64,000 nucleotides of DNA from Modicisalibacter coralii. GTDB taxonomy: Bacteria; Pseudomonadota; Gammaproteobacteria; Pseudomonadales; Halomonadaceae. Below the pieces are notes generated by a model. That model searched no databases and was not told the origin of the DNA. It was given only the letters and a program-made list of their open reading frames with translations. The DNA lies in NCBI RefSeq assembly GCF_004117855.1, contig NZ_QWBW01000027.1, positions 1-64,000 on the forward strand, read 5' to 3'. A program made the translations under genes and the position numbers. Shown here piece by piece: positions 12,325 to 55,393 of this stretch. How positions within the stretch are numbered: the stretch's first letter is position 1; every line of letters begins with the position of its first letter.

Positions 12325-13530
12325 TCAGCCCCCGGACGGCAAGCCGTGCAGCAGCCGTTCTATCGCCTCCGGCGTCTCGGCGAGCAACCGCCCGGCCTCG
12401 CGGGCAAACAGCGGGTCCTCGTAAGCGTGCGCCGCGGCGAGTAGATTGCCCAGCGCTTCGCTGCCGTCGAACGTTCCGATGCCGTCGTAAGGCCAGGCCC
12501 GGGGATCCGTCGCGTAACCGGCAACGAACCGAAATCCCGCCTGCAGGCTCCGCCCATGGCTCTGGTAATGCCAGAGGTCTTCACCGAGGCCGTCGGCGTA
12601 GCGTGCCAGCTTAGCATAGGCTTGCAGATTGAAATTGCTGTAGTGCCAGGGACGCGTACGCGCCAGTTCCTCGGGCTGCTTCCCCGCCGGCGTGAATTGC
12701 GTCACGATCCGTTCACGGGTCTTGTCCAACTGCTCCCTGGCGACCCCGGGCTGATGGGTGAACAGCGCGAAGGCCACGACCTGAGCGTCGTACCAGGTGC
12801 CGTGATTGTTCGTCGCCCGCCCCTCTTCGATACCGTGGTCACTGGTCAGCAACCAATTCAGGAACGCCCGGTACCAGTCCTGCACCGCCCGGTATTCCTC
12901 GGGGGCCAACACCCCGGCCGGGCGAATCAGCTCTATGCTGTCGGCGACCGCAATCAGCACGCGGCTGTCGATGATGCCGATGTCGCGGCCGGCGACGCGA
13001 CCGGGAATCGCCTGGGCGTAGCGCATGTTGGGGTTCATGCGGGTATCGTCGGCGACGAACCAGTGCACCAGCTGGCGCGCCGCCTTTTTCGCGTAGGCGA
13101 TCTCGCCCGTGAAATGGTAGGCCAGCCCCAGGGCCTCGACGTCGCTGGCGAAATCGAGCATCCGCTGCTTGTCGGTAGCACCGGACTTGGTGGCCATGTT
13201 GTACTCGCCGTCCCGATGCACATAGGGCAAGCCATCCGGCGTGTCCGGGTTGGGCCACCAGTAAGGGGCGAAGCTGAAATAATCGTGCGGGTCGCCGCTG
13301 GCAGGCAACTGCGTCTTGTCGGTCACGGAATACAGCGGCGCATCCAGCGCGTCGTCGGCCGCGTCGGTCAGTGCGCGCAGCGCGGCCACGGCCGATGCTT
13401 GCCGATCGACGATCGCCGCCTGACTGGCGGCCAGCGCGTCCGGCGGGTAAGTGATGAAACGGGGCTCACCGGCCCGGGCCGTCAGGCTCGCCAGCAGCCC
13501 ACCCAGCGCCATGATGAAAAGAACTCGCAT
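12325..13530 (-). CDS. Secreted alginate-lyase-family (PF05426) polysaccharide lyase
   Basis: A 401-residue protein with a signal peptide (MRVLFIMALGGLLASLTARA, cleavage before GEP) followed by an alpha-toroid lyase domain. Diagnostic motifs are the SFAPYWWPNPDTPDG aromatic cluster near residue 85 and NNHGTWYDAQ near residue 244, where Asn and His are expected catalytic residues, then RPWHYSNFNLQAY. Members of PF05426 cleave alginate or other polyuronates by beta-elimination. This one differs from AlgL and is closer to the stand-alone family group with the Y-W-W-P motif. It may degrade the polymer made by the operon at 20.9-31.2 kb, but it is on the opposite strand and 7.4 kb away, so the link is inferred. 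Confidence 0.85.
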   Translation of the reverse strand: MRVLFIMALGGLLASLTARAGEPRFITYPPDALAASQAAIVDRQASAVAALRALTDAADDALDAPLYSVTDKTQLPASGDPHDYFSFAPYWWPNPDTPDGLPYVHRDGEYNMATKSGATDKQRMLDFASDVEALGLAYHFTGEIAYAKKAARQLVHWFVADDTRMNPNMRYAQAIPGRVAGRDIGIIDSRVLIAVADSIELIRPAGVLAPEEYRAVQDWYRAFLNWLLTSDHGIEEGRATNNHGTWYDAQVVAFALFTHQPGVAREQLDKTRERIVTQFTPAGKQPEELARTRPWHYSNFNLQAYAKLARYADGLGEDLWHYQSHGRSLQAGFRFVAGYATDPRAWPYDGIGTFDGSEALGNLLAAAHAYEDPLFAREAGRLLAETPEAIERLLHGLPSGG

Positions 13531-20614: not shown

Positions 20615-20644
20615 TTGACCAACGGGGCCGGTGCGCTCTACGCT
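20615..20644 (+). promoter_or_regulatory. Possible promoter of the polysaccharide operon
   Basis: TTGACC (20615) and TACGCT (20639) are spaced 18 bases apart. This is the best sigma-70-like pair in the 400-base gap ahead of ugd. It predicts a leader of about 300 bases. I do not see a clear AlgU-type (GAACTT/TCTGA) pair. Confidence 0.35.
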
Positions 20645-20946
20645 AGGACCCGTTACCCGGCAATTACAAATCTTAACCGCGCTAAATTAGCGGGATGCGG
20701 AGCGTTTTGTCATGAGACGGCCATTGTGGGCGTCATGAAGAAATAGCCAGACAAGACGACCTCCGAGGCGGCAAACAAGCCACGCCGACCGACGACGGCA
20801 TCGACATCGCCGACCGCTCGTCACCCCCGGGCCCCAAGGAATGGACAAGCATCGCAGCCCGGCACGCCAGCCAGCCACCCGACTCGAGGGTCCGTGGCTC
20901 ATTACGGCAACGTGAAATTGCACAACCACCATGGAGAGGTGTTGAA
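20645..20946 (+). other. Long untranslated leader ahead of the polysaccharide operon
   Basis: About 300 bases hold no credible gene. A palindrome CGCTAA-A-TTAGCG (20680-20692) could be an operator, and the heptamer GTCATGA occurs twice (20711 and 20733). The ugd ribosome-binding site GGAGAGG lies just before its ATG. No known riboswitch was recognised. Confidence 0.4.
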
Positions 20947-22293
20947 ATGAGGATAACCATCTTCGGTTCGGGCTATGTCGGCCTGGTCACCGGGACCTGC
21001 CTTGCCGACGTCGGTCACGACGTCATCTGTGTCGATGTCGACGCCGACAAGATCGCCCGCCTCAACCGCGGCGAGATTCCCATCTACGAACCGGGTCTGG
21101 AATCGATGATTCGCAAGAATCGCGATGCCGGGCGCCTGCAGTTCACCACCGACGCCGAACACGCCGTCCATTTCGGCAAGCTCCAGTTCATCGCCGTCGG
21201 AACTCCCTCCGACGAAGACGGCAGCGCCGACCTCAAGTACGTGCTCAAGGTCGCCGAGACCATCGGCCAGCACATGAACGAGTACAAGGTGGTGGTCGAC
21301 AAGTCCACGGTGCCGGTGGGCACGGCCGACAAGGTGCGCGATACCCTGCACCGCACGCTCGAGGCGCGCGGCGCCGAGATCGACGTCGACGTCTGCTCGA
21401 ACCCGGAATTCCTCAAGGAAGGCGCGGCGATCGAGGATTTCTCCAAGGGCGCACGCATCATCGTCGGCACCGACTCGGAAGCCGTGCGCAAGGCCATGCG
21501 CGAGTGCTACGCCCCCTACAACCGCAACCATGAAAAGCTGATGTTCATGGACGTGCGCAGTGCCGAGCTGACCAAGTACGCGGCCAATGCCATGCTCGCC
21601 ACCAAGATCAGCTTCATGAACGAGATCGCCAACCTAGCCGAGCATCTGGGCGCCGACGTCGAGCATGTGCGCCACGGGATCGGCTCGGATCCGCGTATCG
21701 GTTACCACTTCATCTATCCGGGCTGCGGTTATGGCGGTTCCTGCTTCCCCAAGGACGTCAAGGCGCTCAGCCAGACCGCCACGGACATCGGCTACGATGC
21801 CCAGTTGCTGGGCGCGGTCGAGTCCGTCAATCTGCGCCAGAAGACGCGACTCTTCGAAAAACTCAGCCAGGCCTTCGACGGCGACCTGGCGGGCAAGACC
21901 ATCGCCCTGTGGGGGCTGGCCTTCAAGCCCAACACCGACGACATGCGCGAAGCGCCCAGCCGCGAACTCATGGAAGCGCTCTGGGACAGCGGTGCCAGGG
22001 TCCAGGCCTTCGATCCCGAAGCCGCCGAGGAGTGCCGCCGCATCTATGGTGAGCGAGACGACCTCAGCCTCGCCGACAGCCGTGACGAGACCCTCGAAGG
22101 CGCCGATGCCCTGGTGATCTGCACCGAGTGGAAGGCCTTCCGCGCGGTGGACTTCGAACGTCTCCAGCAGACCCTGCACACCCCGGTGGTGGTCGACGGC
22201 CGCAACCTCTTCGACCCGCAGAGCGTCAAGGCCGCCGGGCTGCTCTACTTCGCCATGGGTCGGGGCGATTCCTTGCGCCGCGACGCCGCCTGA
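20947..22293 (+). CDS. ugd: UDP-glucose 6-dehydrogenase
   Basis: A 448-residue NAD-dependent sugar-nucleotide dehydrogenase that makes UDP-glucuronate. The dinucleotide fold starts [20 protein letters not shown]. The active-site Cys lies in [18 protein letters not shown] near residue 264, and the central helix carries [23 protein letters not shown] with Lys and Asn at expected positions. The sequence reads as bacterial UDP-glucose dehydrogenase ([20 protein letters not shown]), not GDP-mannose dehydrogenase AlgD (GLGYVGAVCAGC). This matters because the genes downstream are alginate-like. It is the first gene of the operon, followed by 206 bases with two strong hairpins. Confidence 0.93.
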
Positions 22294-22332
22294 GGCGGCG
22301 ATCGTCGCGCGTCGGCCCCCAGCGGGCCGACG
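22284..22332 (+). promoter_or_regulatory. Two consecutive hairpins at the end of ugd
   Basis: CGCCGCC-TGA-GGCGGCG (22284-22300) holds the ugd stop codon in its loop. It is followed by CGTCGGCCC...GGGCCGACG (22310-22332) with a 9-bp perfect stem. Neither is followed by a T run. They may protect the ugd mRNA end or reduce read-through into the synthase genes. Confidence 0.55.
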
Positions 22333-22499
22333 CCATTCACCGAAACGCAATCACGACCGACCCACGACCAACGGGCCTGCAGGGCCATTCGTCGTTGCGT
22401 GGTCCCGTGAGGCGCTTGTCGTACAGGCGCCGAGAGTGAAGAGCGACGGGCGGTGCCGCATCGGCGTCACCGCCCCTCGTCGCACAAGGAAGGTTCGTC

Positions 22500-24434
22500 A
22501 TGTCGCTGAAAGAAAGCTCCGGGAGCTCGAGGGCCAGCCGGATCACCGAATTGACGACGCTGCTGTTCCTGCTGTCATTGATCGTCATACTCGTCTTCGA
22601 ACTACCGTCCGAGGTCTTCTCGCCCGGCTCGAAGAGCTTCATCCTCGCCATCGGCGTCATCGGCGCCTGGCGCTATTCCTGGTGGTTCACCCTCGCCAGC
22701 CGCTCAGTCTGGTACAACCGCCACGTCTTCCCGGCGCTGCGTCGCCGCGCGGATAGCGAGGGCGCCGACCAGCGTCCCGATGCGCTGTATGTGCTGTGCA
22801 CCTCGTTCCGGATCGAACCCGAGGTGACCTTTTCCGTCTATGACGCGCTGATCCGCGATGCGGCCGATTACGGCGTGCCCACGACGATCTTCGCGGCAAT
22901 CGCCGACCGCAGCGATGTCGACGTCATCGATCATGTCATGGCCGAGAACGACTGGCCGAGCAATGTCGAAGTCTCCTACATGTTCCAGAAGGGCGACGGC
23001 AAGCGCTCCGCCATGGCGGAAGTCCTGCGCGCCATTTCACGGCGCATGCCCAGTCATCGCTCGTTGCTGATCTCGATGGACGGCGATATCCAGATCGAGC
23101 CGGGCACCCTCGCCCGCTCGCTGTCGTTCTTCTTCATCAAGGATGACCTCGGCGCCCTGACCACCAACAACCGCGCCATCGTCAACGGCGGTGACGTCAC
23201 CAAGGAATGGTACGACCTGCGTTACGCCCAGCGTCATCTGATGATGAGCTCGATGTCGGTCTCCGAGCGTCTGCTGGTCCTGACCGGCCGCTACAGCGCC
23301 TTCCGCGCCGAACTGGCCATTCAGCCCGGCTTCATCGACCTGGTCGAGAACGACCATATCGAACATTGGCGCTTCGGCAACTTCAAGTTCCTGTCCGGCG
23401 ACGACAAGTCGACCTGGTTCTGGCTGCTCAAGAACGGCTGGAAGATGCTCTACATACCGGACGTCTATGTCACGGGCTTCGAGGAACTGCCCGACAAGAA
23501 TCGCTTCTTCAAGTCCAGCATCGACCTGATGCGCCGCTGGTACGGCAACATGCTGCGCACCAGCGGACGTGCCATTGCGCTGGGGCCCCGGCGCATGGGG
23601 CTTTTCACCTGGTGGAGCCTCGTCGATCAACGACTGTCGATGTGGACGACGCTGATCGGCCCCTCGGTGGCGATCATGCTGACGCTGTTCGTGCGGCCCT
23701 CGTTCATCTTCGCCTATCTGCTGTGGATCCTCTTTACCCGCAGCGTCACCGCCACGGTACTGGCCCTGCAGCATGGCCGCTTCAGCCTGCTGTGGATCCC
23801 CATGCTCTACTACAACCAGGTGGGCGGCGGGATCCTCAAGACCTACGTGAGCTTTCGCTTCAACCGCCAGTCCTGGTCGCGTCAGGGCATCTCGGCCGGG
23901 GAGCCCGACGACCCCAGGGCCGCCCGTCGCCAGCGTCGCATGGGTCACATCATGCACGGCGTCTATGTCGGCTCGCTGCTGCTCTGCCTGGCGATTGCGG
24001 TCGGCGTCGTGGCCCCTCCCGATCGCATGGCCTTCGCGATTCTCGAGGATCAGAGCGGCGCCCTGGAAACGTCGTCCGAGCATGCCCGGGACGACGGCTA
24101 CTGGCTGGCACTGGCGCTGGCCGATGCCCCCGAGGACACCACCGTGCAGCTCCCCTCGGGAACGCTGCGCGTCGGCCAGCGCTTTACCGAGAAGCTCTTC
24201 GAGGTGGGCGGCGTCAGGGCACAGGGCTTTCGCGGCCATGGTGGCGAACGCCCGACCGTGATGCGCTTGAGCCCCGGTCTCGCCGGCCGAGTGCACGACG
24301 CAAGTGACCGAACACTGGATGACGTCGACCGTCTGGCCTGCCCCACGGCCACCCCCTGCCGGCTGGAAACGGCCTCGGGGACCGTCACCCTCAAAGACAT
24401 GGATGTCCGCCGCATCGCTCGGCACAACGGTTGA
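22500..24434 (+). CDS. Alg8-like processive glycosyltransferase (GT2), with extra C-terminal domain
   Basis: A 644-residue inner-membrane glycosyltransferase. Two N-terminal membrane helices (about residues 20-65) precede a GT2 domain with LLISMDGDIQIEPG near residue 196 (the D-x-D metal site), the LVENDHIEHWRFG motif near residue 281 and the acceptor-helix equivalent of QxxRW in DLMRRWYGNMLR near residue 343. At least three more membrane helices follow. This is the Alg8 plan (polymannuronate synthase, about 490 residues), but about 130 extra residues follow a final helix (MHGVYVGSLLLCLAIAVGVV), probably periplasmic. With ugd in front, the donor is probably UDP-glucuronate. AAGGAAGG sits 6 bases before the ATG. 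Confidence 0.85.
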   Translation: MSLKESSGSSRASRITELTTLLFLLSLIVILVFELPSEVFSPGSKSFILAIGVIGAWRYSWWFTLASRSVWYNRHVFPALRRRADSEGADQRPDALYVLCTSFRIEPEVTFSVYDALIRDAADYGVPTTIFAAIADRSDVDVIDHVMAENDWPSNVEVSYMFQKGDGKRSAMAEVLRAISRRMPSHRSLLISMDGDIQIEPGTLARSLSFFFIKDDLGALTTNNRAIVNGGDVTKEWYDLRYAQRHLMMSSMSVSERLLVLTGRYSAFRAELAIQPGFIDLVENDHIEHWRFGNFKFLSGDDKSTWFWLLKNGWKMLYIPDVYVTGFEELPDKNRFFKSSIDLMRRWYGNMLRTSGRAIALGPRRMGLFTWWSLVDQRLSMWTTLIGPSVAIMLTLFVRPSFIFAYLLWILFTRSVTATVLALQHGRFSLLWIPMLYYNQVGGGILKTYVSFRFNRQSWSRQGISAGEPDDPRAARRQRRMGHIMHGVYVGSLLLCLAIAVGVVAPPDRMAFAILEDQSGALETSSEHARDDGYWLALALADAPEDTTVQLPSGTLRVGQRFTEKLFEVGGVRAQGFRGHGGERPTVMRLSPGLAGRVHDASDRTLDDVDRLACPTATPCRLETASGTVTLKDMDVRRIARHNG

Positions 24435-24476
24435 TGACAGCCAGGACAAGGATCAAAGGACAGGGAGGACCCCAAC

Positions 24477-26021
24477 ATGAGCGACGATAACCCGCGCAAC
24501 CCAGGCCGTACCGAGCCCACACTCGAGGGCCCGACGGGAAAGAAGCCGAGTTCGGCGACAGGCGCATCGAGCGATGGCGAGGCGAAGCGCGACACCAGCG
24601 AACAACTCAACCACGAGCGCCGCGACGAACGCCGGCACGTCCGTGTCGACGTTCCCTTCGAGGCGCGCTTCGCGGATGGCAGTACCCTGACGGGTCACGA
24701 TCTGTCACTGGGCGGGTTCTCGGTCTACAGCGACACGCCGATGCAGGCCGACCAGGTGATGTCGGTCTCGCTGCTGCTGGTCGCCGGCGCCGCCGAGTTG
24801 ATCGTCCCGGTGGATGCCAAGGTGCTGCGCGAGCATGGTGAAAAAGGCAGCAAGCAACATGAAGTCGCTTTCGAGATCACCCGCATCGAGCGGCGTCATC
24901 GCGAATTGCTGCGGCGGGTGATTCGCGCCTATCTCAGCGGCAACCATGCCTCGGTGGAGAACCTGGTCGACAGCGAGGACCCGCAGACACCGCGCAAGCG
25001 CAAGACGGCGACCCCGACCCAGGCGAAGACCAAGTCGCGCAAGCCCTGGGGACGCTACGCGGCCCTGCTGCTTGCCGCCGTCACCCTGGTGGCCGTCGCC
25101 GCCGCCACGGCCTATCGCAACTTCATGCTCATCGAACCGGATTTCGCCGCGGTGACGGCCCCGCGTATCGATGTCCTGGCCCCCGGGGCCGGGCAGCTCA
25201 GCGAACACTCGCTGCAGCCCGGCGACAAGGTGCAGCGCGATGAACGTCTGGCCAAGGTCATCAATAGCGACCTGCAGTCGGAGCTGATCCAGGCCAAGGC
25301 GGCGCACAACTACAACTCGCGTCTCATCGAGAACATGCGCGAACGGATCGACGACGCGGGCAGCCAGCAGATCAGCATGGCTCAGTCGACGACCCCGTCC
25401 AACGGTCGCCCGCCCAGCTTCGAGACGGTCTCCCCCGAGGTCGCCAAGATACGTATCAAGCAGTTCGTCCAGGCGCGCGACTACGAGCAGTCGCGCGTCG
25501 ATGCCCTGCAGACACGCTCCGCGGCCAACGTTCTCTACAGCCCCTGCAACTGTGTCGTGGCCTGGGCGCTGGGCAGCAGCGGCGAGACCTTCATCAACAA
25601 GGGCGACCGGATCATGACGCTGGTGCGTACCGGCAACAACGACATCATGGTCGAGGCCCTGGTCCACATGAGTCAGATCGGCGACATCCAGCCCCATCAG
25701 AAGGCCTATATCGCCCTGCCCAACGCCTCGGAACCCATCCCCGCCCGCGTGCGCTCCGTGGCCCTCGACGTGGAGCGCCAGCCGCGCGCCGGCTTCCCCG
25801 AGTGGGTACGCCAGCAACAGAACGTGGCGAGCGTTCTGCTGGTCCCCGAAGAACCGCTCTCGGCCAGCGATGTCGGCAAGCCCGTCGATGTCCGCTTTTC
25901 CGAGGTCCCGTTCATCGACAATACCGCCGAATGGGTCTGGCAGGGTGCCAGAGCCGCCGCCCAGCAAGTCGAACAATGGTTCGACACGGCTCTGAACAAA
26001 GCCACCGCACAGGTCGATTGA
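24477..26021 (+). CDS. Alg44-like c-di-GMP receptor and co-polymerase (PilZ plus HlyD-type)
   Basis: A 514-residue protein. The N-terminal PilZ domain (about residues 42-145) holds the c-di-GMP motif RRDERRHVRVDVP (R-x-x-x-R) and DLSLGGFSVY (D-x-S-x-x-G). One membrane helix (about 188-206, YAALLLAAVTLVAVAAATAY) leads to a periplasmic membrane-fusion-type domain with the lipoyl-like start APRIDVLAPGAGQLSEHSLQPGD. This is the Alg44 architecture (about 390 residues in Pseudomonas), here with a longer acidic N-terminus and linkers. In alginate synthesis Alg44 binds c-di-GMP and switches on Alg8. By analogy it should activate the synthase encoded just upstream. Confidence 0.87.
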   Translation: MSDDNPRNPGRTEPTLEGPTGKKPSSATGASSDGEAKRDTSEQLNHERRDERRHVRVDVPFEARFADGSTLTGHDLSLGGFSVYSDTPMQADQVMSVSLLLVAGAAELIVPVDAKVLREHGEKGSKQHEVAFEITRIERRHRELLRRVIRAYLSGNHASVENLVDSEDPQTPRKRKTATPTQAKTKSRKPWGRYAALLLAAVTLVAVAAATAYRNFMLIEPDFAAVTAPRIDVLAPGAGQLSEHSLQPGDKVQRDERLAKVINSDLQSELIQAKAAHNYNSRLIENMRERIDDAGSQQISMAQSTTPSNGRPPSFETVSPEVAKIRIKQFVQARDYEQSRVDALQTRSAANVLYSPCNCVVAWALGSSGETFINKGDRIMTLVRTGNNDIMVEALVHMSQIGDIQPHQKAYIALPNASEPIPARVRSVALDVERQPRAGFPEWVRQQQNVASVLLVPEEPLSASDVGKPVDVRFSEVPFIDNTAEWVWQGARAAAQQVEQWFDTALNKATAQVD

Positions 26022-26141
26022 GAGCATCGACGCCCGGGCTGATCGACCCGTGAAGACAAGGAATCTTCACGGGTCGCTTCTGCTCGATACCCGATGAAGA
26101 AAGCAACCCGAAGCGTTTTCCAACGCGAGGAGTCTGCAGAC

Positions 26142-27086
26142 ATGCTTAAGGCCAACTCCCCTCTTTCCGCCCGTGCATCATCTCCAGGCGGTGCTCGTTC
26201 ACGTCGGCGATCCTTGATGGCACCGCTGGTCGTCTCCCTGGGTCTGTCAGGCCTGCTCGGCGGCTTTTCGACACTGGCGATCGCGGACAGCAAGGCCGAT
26301 GACGGCTTATCCGTGCCCCGTGTCGCGGAATGTTCCGAGCGCTATACGCTGATCGCGTCTCCCACGCCCAGGCCCGCGGCCCGATCCATGGAAAAGGATA
26401 TCGAAGAGCAGTTCACGGCCGACAAGCATTGGGGCATCGACAAGAACGTGACGCTGTTGTCGAAAGCCGAAAGCGGCCTGCAGGAGCCCGCCATTCGGGT
26501 CGCCTATCCGAAGGGGACCTCCGCGCCCAGCGACACCGAAGAAGGCGGGGCGGGCTTCTACGCCAGGTTCAAGGCCCTGGAAGGCAGCGAACGTGCCTGC
26601 CTGACCTATCGCGTTCGCTTCGAACCGGGCTTCGATTTCGTCAAGGGCGGCAAGCTGCCGGGCCTGTACGGGGGCGACGCCCCCAGCGGCGGCGACGCCG
26701 TCACCGGCAAGAATGGCTTTTCCATGCGCTTCATGTGGCGCAAGCAGGGTCAGGGCGAACTCTACGAATATGTCGTCAACAAGGACAGCGACTACGGCGA
26801 GTCCGTGGGACGCGGGAAGTGGATCTTTCCCACCGGCCAGTGGACCACGATAGAGCAGGAAATCATCCTCAACGATCCCGACAAGCAGAACGGCATCGCC
26901 AGAGTCTGGATCGACGGCAAGCCGATGCTCGAACAGCACGGCATCGTCTATCGGACGACACCGGCCGTCACCATCGATGGCGTCATGTTCTCGACGTTCT
27001 TTGGCGGCCATGGCAAGGACTGGCGAACACCGAAAGACCAGCATGCGGATTTCGGCGACTTCAACATTTATATTCCCCAAAGCTGA
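26142..27086 (+). CDS. PL14-type polysaccharide lyase, exported
   Basis: A 314-residue protein with an N-terminal export signal (arginine-rich stretch GARSRRRSL, then hydrophobic APLVVSLGLSGLLGG, end near IADS). The jelly-roll lyase domain shows KGGKLPGLYGGDAPSGG near residue 168, GFSMRFMWRKQGQGELYEY, GRGKWIFPTGQWTTIEQEI and VMFSTFFGGHGKDW. These agree with polysaccharide lyase family 14, whose members cut alginate or glucuronic-acid polymers (the Chlorella virus enzyme vAL-1 acts on glucuronate). I chose ATG 26142, with GAGGAG upstream, over ATG 26094, which has none. Within a synthesis operon it probably trims or clears stray polymer in the periplasm. Confidence 0.82.
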   Translation: MLKANSPLSARASSPGGARSRRRSLMAPLVVSLGLSGLLGGFSTLAIADSKADDGLSVPRVAECSERYTLIASPTPRPAARSMEKDIEEQFTADKHWGIDKNVTLLSKAESGLQEPAIRVAYPKGTSAPSDTEEGGAGFYARFKALEGSERACLTYRVRFEPGFDFVKGGKLPGLYGGDAPSGGDAVTGKNGFSMRFMWRKQGQGELYEYVVNKDSDYGESVGRGKWIFPTGQWTTIEQEIILNDPDKQNGIARVWIDGKPMLEQHGIVYRTTPAVTIDGVMFSTFFGGHGKDWRTPKDQHADFGDFNIYIPQS

Positions 27087-27131
27087 TCGAGCCTTGCCGC
27101 CTCCATCGTATTTCGATTCAGGGATGAAAGA

Positions 27132-28394
27132 ATGATTTTCGAAAAACCTTGTCCGACAAGGAAGACAGGCAACCGGCATTGGTTGCATACGCTCTTCCTC
27201 TTGGTACTGGCCGCCATGGCTTGTCAGCAGGCCATGGCTTACAGCTATGAGGAACGACAGAACATCGATTTCTCGAAATACACGGTGACGGATCCGAACG
27301 CCTCCTTTTTCGATGTCGATGCTCGCATGAAAACGCTCGAGAACACGGACAATTCGATGCTGCTCGAGCGCATGGATCATCTTCAGATGACCGAAAGCTG
27401 CAAATCCATGCTGTCCAAGCCTCCGCTGGACAATCGCATCCGGATCCCGGGTTATTATCCCAGCCCCAAGGCCTGGCGTGAGGCCTCGCAGCCGATGTTC
27501 GACTTCTCGGAGGATGTCAGCCAGCTTGCGGGCGCCTACGTGGCCACACAGGACAATTACTATGGTGAATGCCTGATCAATTACCTGAACAAATGGGCAG
27601 AAGCCAATGCCCTGTGGAAATTCTATTATTCCCTGGATGACCGCCAGGCCTGGTACTCCACGGAGTCGATGATGTTCGGTGCCGCCATGGCCTACTCCAT
27701 CGTGCGGCCGAGGATCGAGGGCATGGAGGAGGAGAAGAAAAATATCGACGCCTGGTTGAATCGCCTGGCCAAGCGCCACTCCGCCATCCAGGGCGGTCTC
27801 AAGGGCAGTTGCTGCAACAACCACTTCTATCGCCGGGCGCTGTATGCCTCCATGATCGGCATCCTGACCGATGACGACGAGCTCTTCCAGTTCGGCGTCA
27901 GCGCGATCTACTCGGCCTTGAACGACATGACGCCGGAAGGCGGGTTCCCACTGGAACTTTCCAGGGGGCGGCGTGCTACGCACTACCAGAATTACGCGCT
28001 CCTGTATCTCATCACCAACATGCAGATCATTTCCCGTCAGGGTTATGACGTCTTCAACCTGGAAGTCAACGGGCACTCCATCAGAGACGCGGTCAACTAT
28101 CTCATGGCTATCATCGAAGACCCGTCACAGCTCAAGGATTATGCGCCTCACGAGCAGTATCAGGGCTTCATGAAGTACGACCAGTATTTCACCTGGATGG
28201 AAATCTACCTGACCCATTTCCAGCAGCCGGATCTGGAAAAATTCCTCGAGCAATATCGCCCCGTCTACAACCGCGGCGCCGGTGGCTATATCACCCTGTA
28301 CTTCATGCCACCGGGCAAGCAGCAACGCGCCCGATACGAAGAATCCCAGGAAAAGCAGGAAAGAGCCGACATAGCGATTCCCGAACGCAACTGA
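27132..28394 (+). CDS. AlgL-like (PL5/PF05426) periplasmic polyuronate lyase
   Basis: A 420-residue protein with a signal peptide (HWLHTLFLLVLAAMACQQAMA) and an alpha-barrel lyase domain. The AlgL-type catalytic stretches are GSCCNNHFYRRALYASMIG near residue 233 (N-N-H) and LELSRGRRATHYQNYALLYL near residue 275 (R and Tyr). AlgL of alginate producers clears mannuronan from the periplasm and is encoded inside the alginate operon; this gene has the same place in an operon without AlgD. Its substrate is thus more likely polyglucuronate, though that is inference. It lies 45 bases after the PL14 gene, so the operon has two lyases of different folds. Confidence 0.85.
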   Translation: MIFEKPCPTRKTGNRHWLHTLFLLVLAAMACQQAMAYSYEERQNIDFSKYTVTDPNASFFDVDARMKTLENTDNSMLLERMDHLQMTESCKSMLSKPPLDNRIRIPGYYPSPKAWREASQPMFDFSEDVSQLAGAYVATQDNYYGECLINYLNKWAEANALWKFYYSLDDRQAWYSTESMMFGAAMAYSIVRPRIEGMEEEKKNIDAWLNRLAKRHSAIQGGLKGSCCNNHFYRRALYASMIGILTDDDELFQFGVSAIYSALNDMTPEGGFPLELSRGRRATHYQNYALLYLITNMQIISRQGYDVFNLEVNGHSIRDAVNYLMAIIEDPSQLKDYAPHEQYQGFMKYDQYFTWMEIYLTHFQQPDLEKFLEQYRPVYNRGAGGYITLYFMPPGKQQRARYEESQEKQERADIAIPERN

Positions 28395-28438
28395 ATGACG
28401 GGCCCAGGAAACGAGCTTTCAAGGCCAGGGAGGCAAGC

Positions 28439-31207
28439 ATGAAATATCTCACCCCCACTCTTCCATCCGACCGCCGGCTGCTGAGGGCCGGCGTGACGCC
28501 GCTGGCGCTGGCGTTTGGCCTGGCCTGGCTGGGTGGCTGCGCGGTCGGTCAGAGTCAACACATGAGCGCGGTCGAATCGACACTTCCCGCGCAATATCAC
28601 GACTGGTTCGATGGCGGCACGCCGGTCCAGGCCGACAACCTGACATGGAACCGCATGGACTTCGCCCGTCAGGCGCTGGAAAGCGGCAAGACGGAAAAGG
28701 GCATCAGCAGCCTGCAGGCCCTGGCCCGCGAAGGGTTCGAGCCGGCCTATTACGAACTCGGCAAGCTCTATGACGATGGCGAACAAGTCCCCCGCGACCC
28801 CGGCCGTGCCGCAACGCTCTATGCCAAGGCGCTGCACGACCCCTCTTCCGTCCTCGACAATGCGTCGGCGAGACTGGGTCGCCTCTATCGCGACGGCGAG
28901 GGTGTCGAGCGCAATCCGGTGCTGGCGTATTTCCTGTTCCAGCAGGCCGTCGAGAACGGCGACATGAACAGCGCCAGAAACGACCTGGCCGACATGCTCG
29001 TCGAAGGCGTCGGTACCGAGCCGGATCCGCAGCGCGCCAGGCAACTCTACGAAACCGCTGCCCGGGAAGGCAGCAGCCATGCCCTGAAGGCGCTCGCCGC
29101 CGCGCATGCCCCGGGAGGCTGGCTGGAGACCGATCCCGAACGGGCCAGGCAATACGCGCAACAATACGCGGATACGTTACGCGTCGAGGCCAAAGCGGGT
29201 GATAGCGGGGCGATGGTTCAATTGGCCCGGCTCTACGCTGAAGATGGCCTGCTGGGGCCGCAACCCGAAAAGCACGAAAACTGGCTGCTGAAGGCCGCCG
29301 ATTCGGGGCAACCCGATGCGCTCGGCGAAGCCGGCGAGATGATGCTCGAGACCGACCGTCAGCAACGCGGTCTGAGCATGCTGCACAAGGCCGCCGAGGG
29401 CGGCGATGTCGAAGCGATGACCAAGCTCGGCAAGGCCTATCTGGGCGACTACGGCGTCAGCAGCAATCCCGAAAAGGCACGCCACTGGCTGGAGACCGCC
29501 GCTCAGGAAGGATCGGTCAATGCCGCCGTCACGCTGGGACGCGCCTATCTGAGCGGAGACACCTTGCCTCAGTCGACCCAGCGCGGCATCACCCTGTTGG
29601 AAAAGGCCGCCGACGCAGGCGATCCCCTGGCCTATGCGGCACTAGGCCGGGTCTACATGGAAGGCGACGGCGTCCGGGCTCAACCCGAGCGTGCCGTGCA
29701 CTACCTCGAGAAAGGCCATCAGGCGGGCCACGCGTACGCCACGCAGCAACTGGGTGAAGCCTACCTCACCGGCTCCGGCGTGACCGCCGACCCCACTCGC
29801 GCGCAACGCCTCCTCGAGGAAGCCGCCAATCAAGGGCAGACGACGGCGGCCCGGAAACTCGGCGAAGCCTATCTCGAGGGCCAGGTGCTGCCCTTCAACC
29901 CCGATCAGGCGGAAAAATGGCTTCGCCAGGCCACGGATCAGGGTGACATGACCGCGGCGACCGAGCTGGCCGACGCCTACCTGAACGGCAAGCTCAATCA
30001 CGGCAACCCTGCCGACGCCGTCAGCATGCTCGAGCAAGCGGCTGACAAAGGCGACGGTTACGCCATGGTCGTGCTGGGCCGCGCCTATCGTGAAGGCCGG
30101 GGGGTATCCCGGAATTTCCAGAAATCGGAATACTGGCTCCGGAAGGCTCGGGAGAGCGGCCATCCTTCCGCGACCGAAGCGCTGGCACGCACGTATCGTG
30201 AAGCCGGGCGTCGGGGCGATATCAGCGCGCTTCGCAAGGCGGCGGAGATGGGCGATACCCCGGCCATGGTCGATCTGGGCCGCGCCTACCTGAATGGCCG
30301 GGGAGTGCAGGCCAACGGCAAGCTGGCGAGAACCTGGCTGAACCGCGCGGCACGCAACGGCAACGCCGGGGCCCTGGCCACGCTGGGCGACATGTACCTG
30401 CAGGGCCAGGGCGTCGCGCGCAACCGGCAGAAAGGGATCGACTACCTGGAAAGAGCCGTCGCCGGCGGCCACGACAGCGCCGGCGCCACGCTCGGCGAGA
30501 TCTATCTGAAAGGTCAGGGCGTGCCGGCCGATCCCGAGAAAGGGGTCCGCCTGCTGAAGCGTGCCGCCGCACACGGCGTGACCTCCGCGCGAATCACCCT
30601 GGGTCAGGCCTATCTCGCCGGCACCGGCGTGCAACGGGATGTCGAGGCCGGCGAAAAGTATCTCGGCTCGGCAGCGCGAAGCGGCAACGCCTATGCCGAA
30701 CAACTGCTCGGCAAGGACTACATGGAAGGGGTCGGAGTCACTCAGAACGCGGAAAAGGCCCGGCAGTGGTTGAACAAGGCGATCGACCAAGGCGACTTGA
30801 CCGCCCAGCAGTATCTGGGCCGGACACTGCTGTATGGCGACTTCGGCGTCACCCAGGACGTGAACCGGGGCAAGCAGTTGCTGGCCGATGCGGCGGAAAA
30901 GGGCCACGCCGGCTCGATGGCCACGCTGGGCCGCGAGTACCTGCGCGGCGACCTGCTGCCCATGAATCGATCCAAGGGCGCCGAGTATCTCTACGAGGCC
31001 GCCGAAAAGGGTCATCCGACGGCGCGACTGGCCCTGGCCAAGGCCTATCTGCGGGCCAACGGGCTCGAAAACGTCAGTCAGGAACAGGCCATCGTCTGGC
31101 TCGACAGTACCCTCGACTCGGGGGGCAATCTCGGCTTGAAGACCATGCGCCAGTTGCTCGCCAACGAGAGTGCCGCCGAAGCGGCCAGCAGCACCGGTAC
31201 CCGTTGA
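28439..31207 (+). CDS. AlgK-like Sel1-repeat lipoprotein, very long
   Basis: A 922-residue lipoprotein: the lipobox LGGC ends at residue 33, with the signal region TPLALAFGLAWLGGC. The rest is about twenty Sel1-like repeats of 34-38 residues, such as AVTLGRAYLSGDTLPQSTQR and ATLGDMYLQGQGVARNRQKG. AlgK of Pseudomonas (about 475 residues) has the same lipoprotein and repeat plan and links the periplasmic complex with the AlgE porin. This protein is about twice as long. It has no AlgE gene beside it, so it may span more of the periplasm or dock to a different porin. GGGAGG precedes the ATG. It ends the operon. Confidence 0.85.
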   Translation: MKYLTPTLPSDRRLLRAGVTPLALAFGLAWLGGCAVGQSQHMSAVESTLPAQYHDWFDGGTPVQADNLTWNRMDFARQALESGKTEKGISSLQALAREGFEPAYYELGKLYDDGEQVPRDPGRAATLYAKALHDPSSVLDNASARLGRLYRDGEGVERNPVLAYFLFQQAVENGDMNSARNDLADMLVEGVGTEPDPQRARQLYETAAREGSSHALKALAAAHAPGGWLETDPERARQYAQQYADTLRVEAKAGDSGAMVQLARLYAEDGLLGPQPEKHENWLLKAADSGQPDALGEAGEMMLETDRQQRGLSMLHKAAEGGDVEAMTKLGKAYLGDYGVSSNPEKARHWLETAAQEGSVNAAVTLGRAYLSGDTLPQSTQRGITLLEKAADAGDPLAYAALGRVYMEGDGVRAQPERAVHYLEKGHQAGHAYATQQLGEAYLTGSGVTADPTRAQRLLEEAANQGQTTAARKLGEAYLEGQVLPFNPDQAEKWLRQATDQGDMTAATELADAYLNGKLNHGNPADAVSMLEQAADKGDGYAMVVLGRAYREGRGVSRNFQKSEYWLRKARESGHPSATEALARTYREAGRRGDISALRKAAEMGDTPAMVDLGRAYLNGRGVQANGKLARTWLNRAARNGNAGALATLGDMYLQGQGVARNRQKGIDYLERAVAGGHDSAGATLGEIYLKGQGVPADPEKGVRLLKRAAAHGVTSARITLGQAYLAGTGVQRDVEAGEKYLGSAARSGNAYAEQLLGKDYMEGVGVTQNAEKARQWLNKAIDQGDLTAQQYLGRTLLYGDFGVTQDVNRGKQLLADAAEKGHAGSMATLGREYLRGDLLPMNRSKGAEYLYEAAEKGHPTARLALAKAYLRANGLENVSQEQAIVWLDSTLDSGGNLGLKTMRQLLANESAAEAASSTGTR

Positions 31208-51020: not shown

Positions 51021-51306
51021 CTCAATTAAATAATACTGGACCGCCTGCGCGATTGCCTTGGCGATTAATTTAGCGCCATTGCCGAAGTAGTGCTCTGTAT
51101 ATATGATGCGGCCCACCTCAAAGCTTAAAGGGTATAAGCAAAGTCATTAGGGGAACAGTATGAGCGACGCTATCCAGGTGTCATCAGCGCCATAAGCCCG
51201 CAACCCATTAGAAAAGACCGCCTCCGATCCGCAAAGCCTTTCATTGCACTCAGCTCTCCATGTCTGATTAAAGCGCAAAATATTTACACAACCTCAATTA
51301 AATAAT
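51021..51306. repeat. 14-base direct repeat around an AT-rich gap
   Basis: CTCAATTAAATAAT occurs at 51021-51034 and again at 51293-51306, 272 bases apart. The second copy overlaps the 3' end of the first LysE-type gene. The gap between holds no gene. It marks the point where GC content falls sharply. Confidence 0.6.
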
Positions 51307-51900
51307 TTCTGACACCACAAGCCATGCAGATGACACCATCAATACACCCCCTAACATTTGGTTAACTGTTTTTCTCGATTTCTCAGAATTCAACAAATGA
51401 TCAACAAGCCTACCAAAAGAGGCCCAAAAATATAAACAAACATACCCCAAGGCAACCAACATGGCAGAAACAACGACGACGGCTTGCCATATATTTAGGA
51501 CGGTTATAGCGGAGGAGGATACAGTGACAGCCATCACCCAGGTCTTGACATTAATGATCTGAAACAATGCAAGACTGAAGAATCCATATGAGTTATAAAC
51601 ATCAGATGTCGAACCTGTTTCTCGAAACATAAGGTACCCCATATATAGAAGATAACCGCCACCAACAATAACCATGACTTTTCTAACGACGGGATAAGCA
51701 TGGACTATCTTGTCTAACCCAAGCAATGTCAAAATAATGACTGTCACCCCACCCAAAATGATACCGCTAATTGGTTTCGCGACGAACCCCAACCCATGTT
51801 TCTTAGCAGCAAACAACACTATAAAATTATTGGGCCCTGGGGTGATAAGTGATGCAAAGAGAAGCCCAAAAACAGGAGTCAGCGTTAACAGCGAAGTCAT
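51298..51900 (-). CDS. LysE/RhtB-family amino acid exporter (copy 1)
   Basis: A 200-residue inner-membrane protein with about six helices and the family N-terminus: FASLITPGPNNFIVLFAAKK (the PGPNxxxV motif). AT-rich codon use stands out against the window. Members export basic or neutral amino acids and homoserine. It is the last gene of the minus-strand accessory operon, 123 bases after alaX. Only one of the two exporters may be active; substrates cannot be read. Confidence 0.88.
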   Translation of the reverse strand: MTSLLTLTPVFGLLFASLITPGPNNFIVLFAAKKHGLGFVAKPISGIILGGVTVIILTLLGLDKIVHAYPVVRKVMVIVGGGYLLYMGYLMFRETGSTSDVYNSYGFFSLALFQIINVKTWVMAVTVSSSAITVLNIWQAVVVVSAMLVALGYVCLYFWASFGRLVDHLLNSEKSRKTVNQMLGGVLMVSSAWLVVSEII

Positions 51901-52023
51901 GAGATTTTTCCGTTACGCTTGAAGCAAAAGCAATCACCAATGGTGTAAACCAATGAATTCAAATACCAACAAGTGCTCAATAGTTACGTGATACTCCGCT
52001 CCATTCTCTGCCACACGCAAAGG

Positions 52024-52671
52024 TCAGCACCCAAGTATATCGTACCCAATCCTGAGCTTTCCTTTCTTTCTCTTAATTCCTTTTATTTCAATATCAAAAA
52101 TCTCTGACGTTGAACTAACGTGTGTACCGCCACATGGAATAGGACGATAATTCTCGATAGAACATACACGATTGGTATAAGGGTCACCACTGATGGCTAC
52201 TTTCAGATCAGCCTCAATTGCCTTGCCTACCAAACGCGCCACCTCGGCCTGGGTAATGTCGGTTTGCTTTTCTTCTCGAAACTCGACGCGCCCCTCCCCT
52301 GGCCAATGATGTCCAGAAACTGCGATCAGACCAGGAAAGCTGGCTTCGACGACACCCGCAATGAGATGACCAGCACTATGCATGCGCATGTTGATCATGC
52401 GCTGTTCTTCGTCGATGGTGAAGGGGAGTTTCATGCCAGGCTGGATCCGCCCCGCATCACTGACGATATGATCGATCTGTCCATCCGCTGAGAAACGGGT
52501 ATCGAGAACCTGAGCGTCACCGATCTTTCCACGATCCCCTCTTTGTCCTCCTCCCTGGGGATGGAACCATGTTTCGGAAGTTCTTATAATTACCTTTTCG
52601 CCGGTTATGACCGAAGTGACCGTGACTTCACCGGTCAGAGCTGAATTTTCAAGATAACGCCGTATAGTCAT
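52024..52671 (-). CDS. alaX: AlaX-type alanyl-tRNA editing protein
   Basis: A 215-residue stand-alone version of the AlaRS editing domain. The zinc-binding H-x-x-x-H is RMHSAGHLIAGVV near residue 98, and the second pair is PIPCGGTHVSSTSEI near residue 180 (C-x-x-x-H). SETWFHPQGGGQRGDRG also matches the family. AlaX hydrolyses mischarged aminoacyl-tRNA, usually Ser-tRNA(Ala). Here it sits between two exporters in an AT-rich operon headed by an oxygenase, which suggests defence against an unusual amino acid. GAGAGGTGAT supports the ATG. Confidence 0.88.
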   Translation of the reverse strand: MTIRRYLENSALTGEVTVTSVITGEKVIIRTSETWFHPQGGGQRGDRGKIGDAQVLDTRFSADGQIDHIVSDAGRIQPGMKLPFTIDEEQRMINMRMHSAGHLIAGVVEASFPGLIAVSGHHWPGEGRVEFREEKQTDITQAEVARLVGKAIEADLKVAISGDPYTNRVCSIENYRPIPCGGTHVSSTSEIFDIEIKGIKRKKGKLRIGYDILGC

Positions 52672-52875
52672 ATCACCTCTCCCAAATCTTTGATTTTTAC
52701 ATCAGACATAGCTAAATATAATAAAAATAAAAACAGCACCGCAACACCATTACTGAAAAATTCTACTAGAGCACCGACAACAATTTTCTACCAGTAAAAT
52801 TACACTCAACCCCAAATAAAACAATCTAAAGCCACCACTGACAATAGCTAAAACCAAGCAACACCTCGGGCCAAC
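52672..52875. other. AT-rich gap in the accessory operon
   Basis: The 204 bases between alaX and the second exporter are very AT-rich and hold no gene. A promoter for alaX could lie here, so the four genes may not form a single transcript. Confidence 0.35.
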
Positions 52876-53490
52876 TTACAAAATATCTACCAAATAATAA
52901 AGCCCGATAAAAACAAAAACAACACCAGGAATTACACCAAAAACATTATTATGGAAAAATCTATTTAATGAAAAAAGACTAAACATGACCGCCATGACAC
53001 CAAAGACCAAAAAGCTAACGGAAATAAGTATTAAAAACACAAGCAGCTTATCCACTACCCCGCTGTAGCTCGCCATCATTGGAGTAAATATTGCCGTAAA
53101 GAAAACGAGAGCCTTTGGATTCGAAACATTAGTCAGCAGGCCATATCCAAATGCATTAGGGATACCATGTGCATAGACACGCGAACCATCGCTTTTATCG
53201 TTCGAATGCTTGGCCAAAGGAATATTCTTAAGAAGGTTTAAAAACCCCAGACCAACAAGGACCAAAGCGCCTATGATAGGTAGAATCTCTCTCAGAACAG
53301 GAACCGCCTTTAAGATAGCCGCAATTCCAATCATTGAAAGCAAGGACCAAGTAGCCACCCCAAGAGTAACGCCAGCAGCAGCTCTAAAACCAGCGCTACG
53401 GCCATATTTAATCGCACACGTAGCGATTGCTAAGATATCGGGCCCCGGAAGCGCCATAACCAAGGCCCAGTTGATAACATCAGCGAGCAT
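52876..53490 (-). CDS. LysE/RhtB-family amino acid exporter (copy 2)
   Basis: A 204-residue inner-membrane protein of the LysE family, with MALPGPDILAIATCAIKYGR (PGPD motif variant) near the N-terminus, and about six membrane helices. It is only distantly similar to the other exporter here, so the two were not formed by recent duplication. It follows the oxygenase gene by 44 bases and is probably co-transcribed with it. Base use is AT-rich. It may export the oxygenase product. Confidence 0.87.
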   Translation of the reverse strand: MLADVINWALVMALPGPDILAIATCAIKYGRSAGFRAAAGVTLGVATWSLLSMIGIAAILKAVPVLREILPIIGALVLVGLGFLNLLKNIPLAKHSNDKSDGSRVYAHGIPNAFGYGLLTNVSNPKALVFFTAIFTPMMASYSGVVDKLLVFLILISVSFLVFGVMAVMFSLFSLNRFFHNNVFGVIPGVVFVFIGLYYLVDIL

Positions 53491-53534
53491 TATTAAAACT
53501 CATTTAAAAACACCCTATTATTCAGCCTCTTTAC

Positions 53535-54344: not shown

Positions 54345-54654
54345 CCTTCACCTCCTAGAACCTGATAACTAAAAGTTAAATAGACAGTATCCACGTTTCT
54401 ATCTTGTTTCTACGTCGGCCTCCAAAACCACCCAACGCCGAGCAATGCAACACCACTCATTCCAGGGCCTTGCCAGTGCCCGCTCTTTTGCCAAGCATGA
54501 GCTTTATTTCGCACATTCAATACGCTGCGCATCGTTTCAATAAAAGATAGTACTCAAACAATCGTGAATCAACCCTAATCTACACGCCCCGAAATGATTG
54601 TCATAAGCCAATGAATTTAAAAAAGATTTATCCCTGAAAACCTCTTCAACCTAA
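54345..54654. other. AT-rich region upstream of the accessory operon
   Basis: The 310 bases hold no gene and probably contain the promoter of the minus-strand operon. No clear operator palindrome was seen. Confidence 0.35.
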
Positions 54655-55261: not shown

Positions 55262-55393
55262 CCTAGCCTCTGAGGCCTTTTGCACAGGGGCTTTGCATGG
55301 GCCGGTGTCAGTTCGCCGTAGCCACTCTATTGCACCGCCCCGCTGCGGCGACTAAGGTGGCGGGCTCTCTTTCGTTGCTGTGGATGCCGAGCC

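What the first reader, a model, noticed from the sequence alone, without database searches (positions are those of the whole stretch)
20947..31207. Alginate-type synthesis operon fed by UDP-glucuronate: probable c-di-GMP-controlled glucuronan
Seen: ugd (not algD), an Alg8-like GT2, an Alg44-like PilZ protein, a PL14 lyase, an AlgL-like lyase and an AlgK-like Sel1 lipoprotein in one strand and order. No algD, algA, algG, algX, algI/J/F or algE is here. Known: Alg8/Alg44/AlgK/AlgL make alginate from GDP-mannuronate; PL14 enzymes include glucuronate lyases. Inference: the polymer is poly-glucuronate, perhaps unmodified, with a new outer-membrane exit.
Basis: partly seen in the sequence, partly recalled or inferred. 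Interest (0 to 1): 0.85.

Follow-up and report, generated by a model that had tools for sequence, protein, structure and literature searches.

The report
Glucuronate-fed relative of alginate operon
A six-gene operon in salt-loving Halomonas-type bacteria looks like the alginate machine rebuilt to use UDP-glucuronate, so it probably makes poly-glucuronate (glucuronan), a polymer whose bacterial synthesis genes were described as unknown in 2023.

Summary
The six genes are real, in the stated order and at the stated coordinates: ugd, an Alg8-like GT2, a PilZ-HlyD (Alg44-like) protein, PL14, PL5 and a Sel1 lipoprotein. All six keep this order in 62 of 67 close loci, nearly all Halomonadaceae. In 65 of 67 the linked sugar dehydrogenase is UDP-glucose type, and none has an algA, algG or algI hit. 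No GDP-mannose dehydrogenase was found in 31 of 31 Halomonadaceae genomes holding this GT2; 4 of 5 comparison genomes show one. Two other clusters carry a different Ugd in another operon position; one has galU. GT2 residues 162/224/260 read F/N/V in 66 of 66 Ugd-linked synthases and R/E/T in 22 of 22 AlgD-linked ones. Most likely: a c-di-GMP-gated synthase making beta-1,4-glucuronan, trimmed by periplasmic lyases. Not shown: that the product is a homopolymer, the outer-membrane exit, any biochemistry. A third uronate lyase at 12325-13530 probably belongs too; its homologue follows the operon in 5 of 8 Salinicola loci. New variant of the alginate kind.

The parts
20615..20645 (+). promoter-like element TTGACC-N18-TACGCT upstream of ugd
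   Evidence: Pattern TTGACN(13-20)CTCTANSCTA occurs upstream of ugd in 6 of 66 sequences with a located ugd (window, L037, L038, L040, L041, L044) and nowhere else in 2,919,074 bases, both strands. Post hoc: the pattern was read off an alignment of nine of these sequences. The consensus scan did not report it.
20947..22293 (+). ugd: UDP-glucose 6-dehydrogenase, makes UDP-glucuronate
   Evidence: PDB 2y0e UGD 574 bits vs GDP-Man DH 1mfz 225 bits; GGSCFPKD cysteine motif in the translation
22500..24434 (+). Alg8-like family-2 glycosyltransferase (synthase), 644 aa, with C-terminal extension of ~125 aa
   Evidence: Pfam Glyco_tranf_2_3; DGD and GDDK motifs in 67 of 67 loci, RRWYGN exactly in 51 of 67; columns 162/224/260 = F/N/V
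24045..24431 (+). C-terminal extension of the GT2, possible remnant of a beta-helix domain
   Evidence: More than 60 aa in 57 of 66 loci (65 Ugd-linked plus L098); no beta-helix Pfam hit in the window's own tail; L098 tail matches the Halomonadaceae tails at E 1.2e-15 and a set of 10 cyanobacterial plus 2 gammaproteobacterial tails at 1.3e-4; direct match only E 0.053 against six controls at 0.16-0.77
24477..26021 (+). Alg44-like protein: N-terminal PilZ, one TM helix (read by eye), HlyD-like periplasmic part; probable c-di-GMP receptor
   Evidence: Pfam PilZ + HlyD_3; RxxxR...[DN]xSxxG in 67 of 67 loci; best PDB profile matches are Alg44 PilZ 4xrn/4rt0/4rt1, about 20 bits, E 0.002-0.003
26094..27086 (+). 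PL14 polysaccharide lyase, probably exported (signal region read by eye)
   Evidence: Pfam PF21294 228 bits; PDB 5gmt 112 bits and vAL-1 29 bits
27132..28394 (+). PL5 (AlgL-like) lyase, signal peptide read by eye
   Evidence: Pfam PF05426 137 bits; PDB A1-III 161 bits, 7fhu 101 bits (Smlt1473 by recall); NNH in 67 of 67 and R..HYQxY in 66 of 67 rows, window included
28439..31207 (+). Sel1-repeat lipoprotein (922 aa), AlgK-like in role only
   Evidence: 13 Sel1 stretches; LGGC lipobox read from the sequence; NCBIfam AlgK 143 bits, far below its cut-off 700 and below MotX 175
12325..13530 (-). third uronate lyase (PF05426; PL38-like by recall), probably part of the same pathway
   Evidence: Pfam 289 bits; PDB 3nfv 235, 8bdq 183 bits; a homologue follows Sel1 in L045, L046, L047, L049, L055, i.e. 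5 of the 8 Salinicola loci fetched

Best explanation
A synthase-dependent exopolysaccharide system of the alginate architecture that uses UDP-glucuronate. Ugd oxidises UDP-glucose to UDP-GlcA. The Alg8-like GT2 in the inner membrane polymerises it, most likely to beta-1,4-linked poly-glucuronate, and moves the chain into the periplasm. The Alg44-like partner gates this through c-di-GMP bound to its PilZ domain and holds the complex with its HlyD-like part. PL5 (and probably PL14 and the nearby PL38-like enzyme) cleaves stray or over-long chains. The Sel1 lipoprotein acts as the periplasmic or outer-membrane scaffold (AlgK role) and hands the chain to an unidentified outer-membrane pore. Shown by sequence: gene families, order, conservation, dehydrogenase type, no AlgD found, intact c-di-GMP motif and catalytic residues. 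Inferred: polymer identity, linkage, gating, lyase roles, scaffold role, exit.
For: Ugd identity; ugd-type DH in 65 of 67 loci and no algA/G/I hit in 67, while with the same reference proteins 8 of 10 AlgD-linked loci (L172-L174, L177-L183) show at least one of the three; AlgD query: best 206 bits or less in 31 of 31 Halomonadaceae genomes with the GT2 against 368-403 in 4 of 5 comparison genomes; own genome: three NDP-sugar DHs over cut-off, all closer to Ugd than to AlgD; clusters L043 and L202 read GT2-PilZ-Ugd-PL14-PL5-Sel1 with a Ugd only 43% and 41% identical to the window's, while the own second Ugd is 76% identical; galU beside GT2-PilZ-PL5 in L175 (TIGR01099 337.9 bits, cut-off 326.8); GT2 columns 162/224/260 F/N/V in 66 of 66 Ugd-linked against R/E/T in 22 of 22 AlgD-linked; PilZ motif 67 of 67; PL5 catalytic pattern 66 of 67; literature passages: Smlt1473 (PL5) called highly active and poly-GlcA specific (PMC4765187), PL14 vAL-1 cleaves 1,4-linked glucuronic acids (PMC8145301).
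Against: No biochemical or compositional data for any member. The lyase families also cut alginate (PL38 even hyaluronan), and the window PL5 scores higher with the alginate lyase A1-III than with Smlt1473. The residue switch follows the tree (one change among labelled rows), so it may be ancestry, not specificity; column 170 does not separate cleanly (D in 17 of 22 AlgD-linked, but also D in L200). PF01050 is present over cut-off in 13 of 14 genus genomes, own included. Genome G788 (of L098) holds an AlgD-like enzyme of 281 bits elsewhere; G789 has one of 237 bits that scores higher as Ugd, 281. Many remoter relatives have no dehydrogenase in the fetched stretch: L095, L098, L104 and L107 and 11 of 15 loci, L200 and L201 with GT2-PilZ-PL5 among them. 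In L151 the Ugd lies about 4 kb from the GT2 with unrelated genes between. For galU the second model PRK13389 is not over its cut-off. A GlcA-containing heteropolymer is not excluded. No exit protein found.
Confidence: 0.66

Rival explanations
1. GlcA-containing heteropolymer: the GT2 alternates UDP-GlcA with another UDP-sugar (as hyaluronan synthase or the type-3 pneumococcal capsule synthase do, recalled), using the adjacent Ugd in the same way.
For: ugd next to a processive GT2 is also the layout of those systems (recalled). Smlt1473 (PL5) was studied with both mannuronate and hyaluronate (PMC8511899 passages) and a PL38 enzyme cuts hyaluronan, so the lyases fit. A Halomonas exopolymer with 27.9% GlcA among other sugars is cited in PMC6962145 (passages).
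Against: The GT2, its PilZ-HlyD partner and PL5 are alginate-type, whose product is a uronate homopolymer; the conserved block holds no second sugar-nucleotide gene; only ugd, and once galU, were seen beside this GT2 group.
Confidence: 0.19
2. Alginate (poly-mannuronate): GDP-ManA is the true donor; ugd is adjacent for another reason or is bifunctional.
For: Overall likeness to the alginate operon; PF01050 present in the own genome; the GT2 is 39-44% identical to the GT2 of order-mates whose loci are AlgD-linked.
Against: No AlgD-type dehydrogenase in 31 of 31 Halomonadaceae genomes with the GT2; G278 carries the GT2 but no PF01050 match over cut-off; no algA/G/I hit in 67 loci; R/E/T columns missing.
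Confidence: 0.06
3. Another uronan from UDP-GlcA, for example poly-galacturonate or an iduronate-containing chain made by a 4- or 5-epimerase encoded elsewhere.
For: L175 carries a beta-helix plus 14 RTX-repeat protein after PL5, a layout recalled from extracellular mannuronan C5-epimerases; a cyanobacterial relative (L105) has a beta-helix Pfam match over cut-off fused to the GT2.
Against: The conserved Halomonadaceae block has no epimerase gene; there the GT2 tail is at most a beta-helix stub, absent in 9 of 66.
Confidence: 0.07

Closest known systems
Alginate biosynthesis operon (algD-8-44-K-E-G-X-L-I-J-F-A; gene list recalled)
   Same: Alg8-type GT2 (39-44% identity to order-mates with AlgD-linked loci), PilZ-HlyD Alg44 architecture, PL5 lyase, Sel1 lipoprotein, dehydrogenase as first gene
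   Different: Dehydrogenase is Ugd, not AlgD; no algA, algG or algI hit; algE not over cut-off in the own genome; algX, algJ and algF were not searched; extra PL14 and a nearby PL38-like lyase; GT2 columns 162/224/260
Bacterial glucuronan producers (Sinorhizobium meliloti M5N1CS, Peteryoungia rosettiformans)
   Same: Proposed product; a glucuronan lyase accompanies production in S. meliloti (PMC10180729, passages)
   Different: Their glucuronan is O-acetylated; the genes were stated to be unknown in 2023, so homology could not be tested. Nine Rhizobium plasmid records hold 37-42% GT2 relatives; the two I read (L146, L147) are AlgD-linked
Cyanobacterial Alg8/BcsA-group synthases (PMC4594306, passages)
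   Same: GT2 relatives of 35-41% in 10 cyanobacterial loci, 7 of the 10 with a PL14 gene in the stretch and none with an AlgD-type hit
   Different: The one HlyD partner tested (L105) has no PilZ match, in line with the paper's finding of no PilZ+HlyD Alg44 in cyanobacteria; GT2 tail longer
Hyaluronan and type-3 pneumococcal capsule systems (recalled)
   Same: ugd beside a processive GT2
   Different: No Alg44, lyases or Sel1 protein; two donor sugars

Membership tests
Alginate biosynthesis system | GDP-mannose 6-dehydrogenase (AlgD) | tested here: not met
   Ugd in its place; none in 31 of 31 genomes
Alginate biosynthesis system | Alg8-type GT2 synthase | tested here: met
   34-44% identity to GT2s of AlgD-linked loci, shared DGD and GDD motifs; no NCBIfam hit at E 0.01
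Alginate biosynthesis system | Alg44: PilZ + HlyD with c-di-GMP motif | tested here: met
Alginate biosynthesis system | AlgK lipoprotein | tested here: not met
   NCBIfam AlgK 143 bits, cut-off 700; MotX scores higher
Alginate biosynthesis system | AlgE outer-membrane porin | tested here: not met
   PF13372 22.5 bits, cut-off 25.2, in the own genome; over cut-off in 3 of 14 genus genomes
Alginate biosynthesis system | AlgG epimerase, AlgI acetylation and AlgA genes linked | tested here: not met
   no algA/G/I hit in 67 loci (reference proteins from one Roseobacter-group cluster, which find at least one of the three in 8 of 10 AlgD-linked loci)
Alginate biosynthesis system | AlgX, AlgJ, AlgF | not tested
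   no model or count was run for them
Alginate biosynthesis system | product contains mannuronate | not testable with these tools
   needs chemistry
Glucuronan biosynthesis (beta-1,4-GlcA homopolymer) | UDP-GlcA supply linked to a polymerising GT2 | tested here: met
Glucuronan biosynthesis (beta-1,4-GlcA homopolymer) | product is poly-GlcA | not testable with these tools
   needs NMR
UDP-glucose 6-dehydrogenase | closest to UGDs, catalytic Cys | tested here: met
   GGSCFPKD
PL5 | family profile and catalytic N, H, R, Y | tested here: met
PL14 | family profile | tested here: met
PL38 (gene 12325-13530) | similarity to PL38 members | tested here: inconclusive
   matches 3nfv and 8bdq; that these are PL38 is recalled, not read

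The most novel reading that the evidence does not exclude
This is the genetic locus of bacterial beta-1,4-glucuronan: a second, parallel branch of Alg8/Alg44 polyuronate synthases, found in many Halomonadaceae and in some other Pseudomonadota, in which the donor is UDP-glucuronate instead of GDP-mannuronate, with a small residue switch in the GT2 (R162/E224/T260 against F/N/V) that reports or determines nucleotide-sugar choice, and with an outer-membrane exit unlike AlgE. In cyanobacterial relatives the synthase carries a fused beta-helix that may epimerise the chain.
Probability: 0.4. Interest if true: 0.84.

Novelty: new variant of a known kind. Interest (0 to 1): 0.72.

Why it matters
Glucuronan has many fields of application, and a 2023 paper states that the genes and chromosomal loci of its biosynthesis remain unknown (PMC10180729; abstract start in a listing, and passages). 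This operon gives a concrete six-gene candidate in many named Halomonas-type strains; Halomonas is already used as a production chassis (PMC13296553, listing only). It also gives a matched pair of synthase groups (AlgD-linked against Ugd-linked) with named residues, useful for learning how polyuronate synthases choose their donor and how c-di-GMP may gate a uronan other than alginate.

Tried and rejected
The GT2 alone matched only two chance-level PDB chains, its profile none. Lyase family as a proof of substrate was rejected because PL5, PL14 and PL38 each have alginate-active and GlcA-active members. Asp170 as a marker was rejected (D in 17 of 22 AlgD-linked; L200, with no AlgD in its stretch, also has D). 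A conserved outer-membrane protein after the operon was sought in 63 loci with a located Sel1 end: the commonest neighbours are purA-like (45 loci), hisZ-like (37) and hflC-like (34) genes on the other strand, not a porin (names recalled from the sequences). Riboswitch: no Rfam match over gathering score in the window. Rhizobium plasmids as glucuronan loci: the two read are AlgD-linked; the other seven were not opened. Phylum sample: 24 of 398 genomes with a GT2 at E 1e-60; contexts fetched for 12 places, the rest not opened. Class sample around G706: 16 of 385 genomes; contexts fetched for the other 15.

The statement that I found no description of this locus rests on ten searches of an open-access library only; most subscription papers and all preprints are outside it. 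The Halomonas smyrnensis genome paper names only a predicted 'Alg8' and an alginate lyase (PMC4523562, passages). Papers were seen as passages only: PMC10180729, PMC4523562, PMC8511899, PMC6962145, PMC4594306, PMC9029943, PMC13027841, PMC11790493, PMC8145301, PMC4765187.


Full report
1. Check of the observation. The six ORFs are at the stated places, on one strand, with short gaps. Pfam and NCBIfam assign a nucleotide-sugar dehydrogenase, a Glyco_tranf_2_3 synthase, PilZ+HlyD_3, Polysacc_lyase_14, Alginate_lyase (PL5) and Sel1 repeats. Against solved structures the dehydrogenase is plainly UDP-glucose type (2y0e, 574 bits; GDP-mannose dehydrogenase 1mfz, 225 bits). The window lies in a 4.4 Mb genome, 99.99% complete, whose nearest named relatives by this GT2 are a Halomonadaceae MAG and Modicisalibacter tunisiensis (86 and 85%).

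2. Conservation. A genome scan with the GT2 matched 109 stretches, 94 encoding a relative; the best 80 were kept, giving 79 loci, L037-L115. Of these, 67 (L037-L103) form the close group: Halomonadaceae plus Caenispirillum salinarum (L043) and a Geminicoccaceae MAG (L098). Among the 67, PilZ is found in 67, PL14 and PL5 in 66 each, ugd in 65, Sel1 in 64, and all six in the window's order in 62. The cluster is common but not universal: in the 146 relatives searched the GT2 is in the own genome, in 12 of 13 others of the genus, in 18 more of the family (the number of family genomes searched is not listed in full) and, at 34-42% identity, in 4 of the order.

3. Which sugar nucleotide? I scored dehydrogenases against the window Ugd and against AlgD from a Roseobacter-group alginate-type cluster on a Salipiger plasmid (L149, annotated with a sugar-phosphate nucleotidyltransferase, a beta-helix and an MBOAT gene). 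In 65 of 67 loci the dehydrogenase is Ugd-like and no locus has algA/G/I hits; the two without are L095 and L098. As a check of sensitivity, the same references find algA, G or I in 8 of 10 AlgD-linked loci (L172-L174, L177-L183, at a laxer E-value). A search with AlgD over 36 genomes gave 368-403 bits in G408, G034, G197 and G369 and 213 in G397; all 31 Halomonadaceae genomes with the GT2 stayed at 206 bits or less. The own genome holds three dehydrogenases over cut-off: the operon's Ugd, a second Ugd (76%) and a Ugd-like protein whose usual cysteine motif reads GGPNFSRD. Of 20 further dehydrogenase stretches fetched from the genus (own included) 19 gave a protein to score and none scored above 207 bits with AlgD; the other matches were not classified. 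PF01050 is over cut-off in 13 of 14 genus genomes, but G278 holds the GT2 without it.

4. A second dehydrogenase association. So Ugd joined, or was replaced in, this cluster at least twice (inference). The Ugd tree is a quick one with long branches, so only the gross split is used. In L175 (G706) the GT2-PilZ-PL5 trio follows galU (337.9 bits, cut-off 326.8), which makes the UDP-glucose for Ugd, and G706 shows no AlgD (best 201 bits). G706 and G1131 are unnamed; that they are alphaproteobacteria is my inference from their kin. Against: G788 has an AlgD-like enzyme of 281 bits outside the L098 stretch; L104 and L107 have no dehydrogenase in their stretches; of the 15 loci, one is Ugd-linked (L202), three AlgD-linked (L203, L208, L209) and 11 have neither.

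5. Synthase residues. In a quick GT2 tree of 38 rows, chosen from 92, the 14 Ugd-linked rows form one side of a branch (SH-aLRT 99); the 8 AlgD-linked rows also need one change when the 16 unlabelled rows are not counted, although L015 sits apart from the other seven. Window columns 162, 224 and 260 are F, N, V in 66 of 66 Ugd-linked rows and R, E, T in 22 of 22 AlgD-linked rows: 19 read and L203, L208, L209. The 22 include order-mates whose loci also match Sel1, alg44/PilZ, algG or algI references (L172-L174, L177, L178). L202 and the galU-linked L175 also read F, N, V. Because the label changes about once on the tree, the columns cannot be separated from ancestry; they are a prediction, not a proof.

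6. Gating and clean-up. The c-di-GMP motif RxxxR...[DN]xSxxG is present in 67 of 67 PilZ proteins, and the best structural relatives by profile are Alg44 PilZ domains, weakly scored. PL5 keeps NNH and R..HYQxY in 66 of 67 rows, like N167, H168, R215 and Y222 of Smlt1473 (PMC8511899 passages). Smlt1473 has maximal polyGlcA activity at pH 7 and is called poly-GlcA specific. PL14 relatives include alginate lyases and vAL-1, which cuts 1,4-linked glucuronic acid chains. The window PL5 is nearer to A1-III (161 bits) than to Smlt1473 (101 bits, entry identified by recall), which warns against over-reading the lyase.

7. An overlooked part. The gene at 12325-13530 (-) is a PF05426 lyase (289 bits) of another kind, nearest to 3nfv and 8bdq. 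Seven of 79 loci hold a homologue in the fetched stretch: it follows Sel1 in L045, L046, L047, L049 and L055 (5 of 8 Salinicola loci) and lies upstream in L041 and L044. PL38, to which I assign it by recall, held two alginate lyases, two glucuronan lyases and one GAG lyase according to PMC13027841 (passages).

8. The GT2 tail. Residues after about 516 form an extension in 57 of 66 loci and are missing in 9. Cyanobacterial relatives carry a longer tail, with a Pect-lyase_RHGA_epim match over cut-off in L105 only (30.4 against 27; L106 below it, L110 none). The Halomonadaceae tail matches the L098 tail (E 1.2e-15), and that matches the cyanobacterial and L016/L017 tails (1.3e-4); the direct comparison is weak (0.053; six controls 0.16-0.77). 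A shrunken beta-helix is my reading, moderately supported.

9. What is missing. AlgE is not over cut-off in the own genome and no porin recurs after the operon. The exit is open. No structure model could be made.

10. Relation to the known. It works like the alginate machine but fails the AlgD, AlgK, AlgE and linked algA/G/I tests, so it is not filed as alginate. It fits the pathway expected for glucuronan, whose genes were called unknown in 2023 (PMC10180729). I commit to glucuronan at 0.66, with a GlcA heteropolymer as the main rival.

Noticed in passing
window 51298-54344: Low-GC stretch (0.507 over 52001-56000; most of the window is 0.63-0.70) with two LysE-type exporter-like ORFs, an alanyl-tRNA-editing-like ORF and a dioxygenase-like ORF (names by eye): looks like an acquired island.
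   Followed up: no
   Followed up: partly
L105, L106, L108, L110, L111, L112, L115: Seven of ten cyanobacterial loci pair a GT2 of this group with a PL14 lyase, with no AlgD-type hit; an HlyD-like gene was confirmed by Pfam in L105 only. Looks like a uronan system of its own.
   Followed up: partly
L016 and L017 (GT2 of 879 aa): Unnamed gammaproteobacterial genomes with a GT2 that has a long C-terminal beta-helix-like region (by eye) beside a PilZ- or HlyD-like gene.
   Followed up: no
G000:C6:3059-4282 (L127): Ugd-like protein whose usual catalytic-cysteine motif reads GGPNFSRD; similarly scoring proteins occur in other genus genomes. Possibly a non-catalytic paralogue.
   Followed up: no
L039, L040, L041, L100: Some Modicisalibacter-group operons carry a second PL5 copy (L039, L040, L041) and a second, shorter Sel1 gene (L040, L041, L100) before the long Sel1 gene.
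   Followed up: partly
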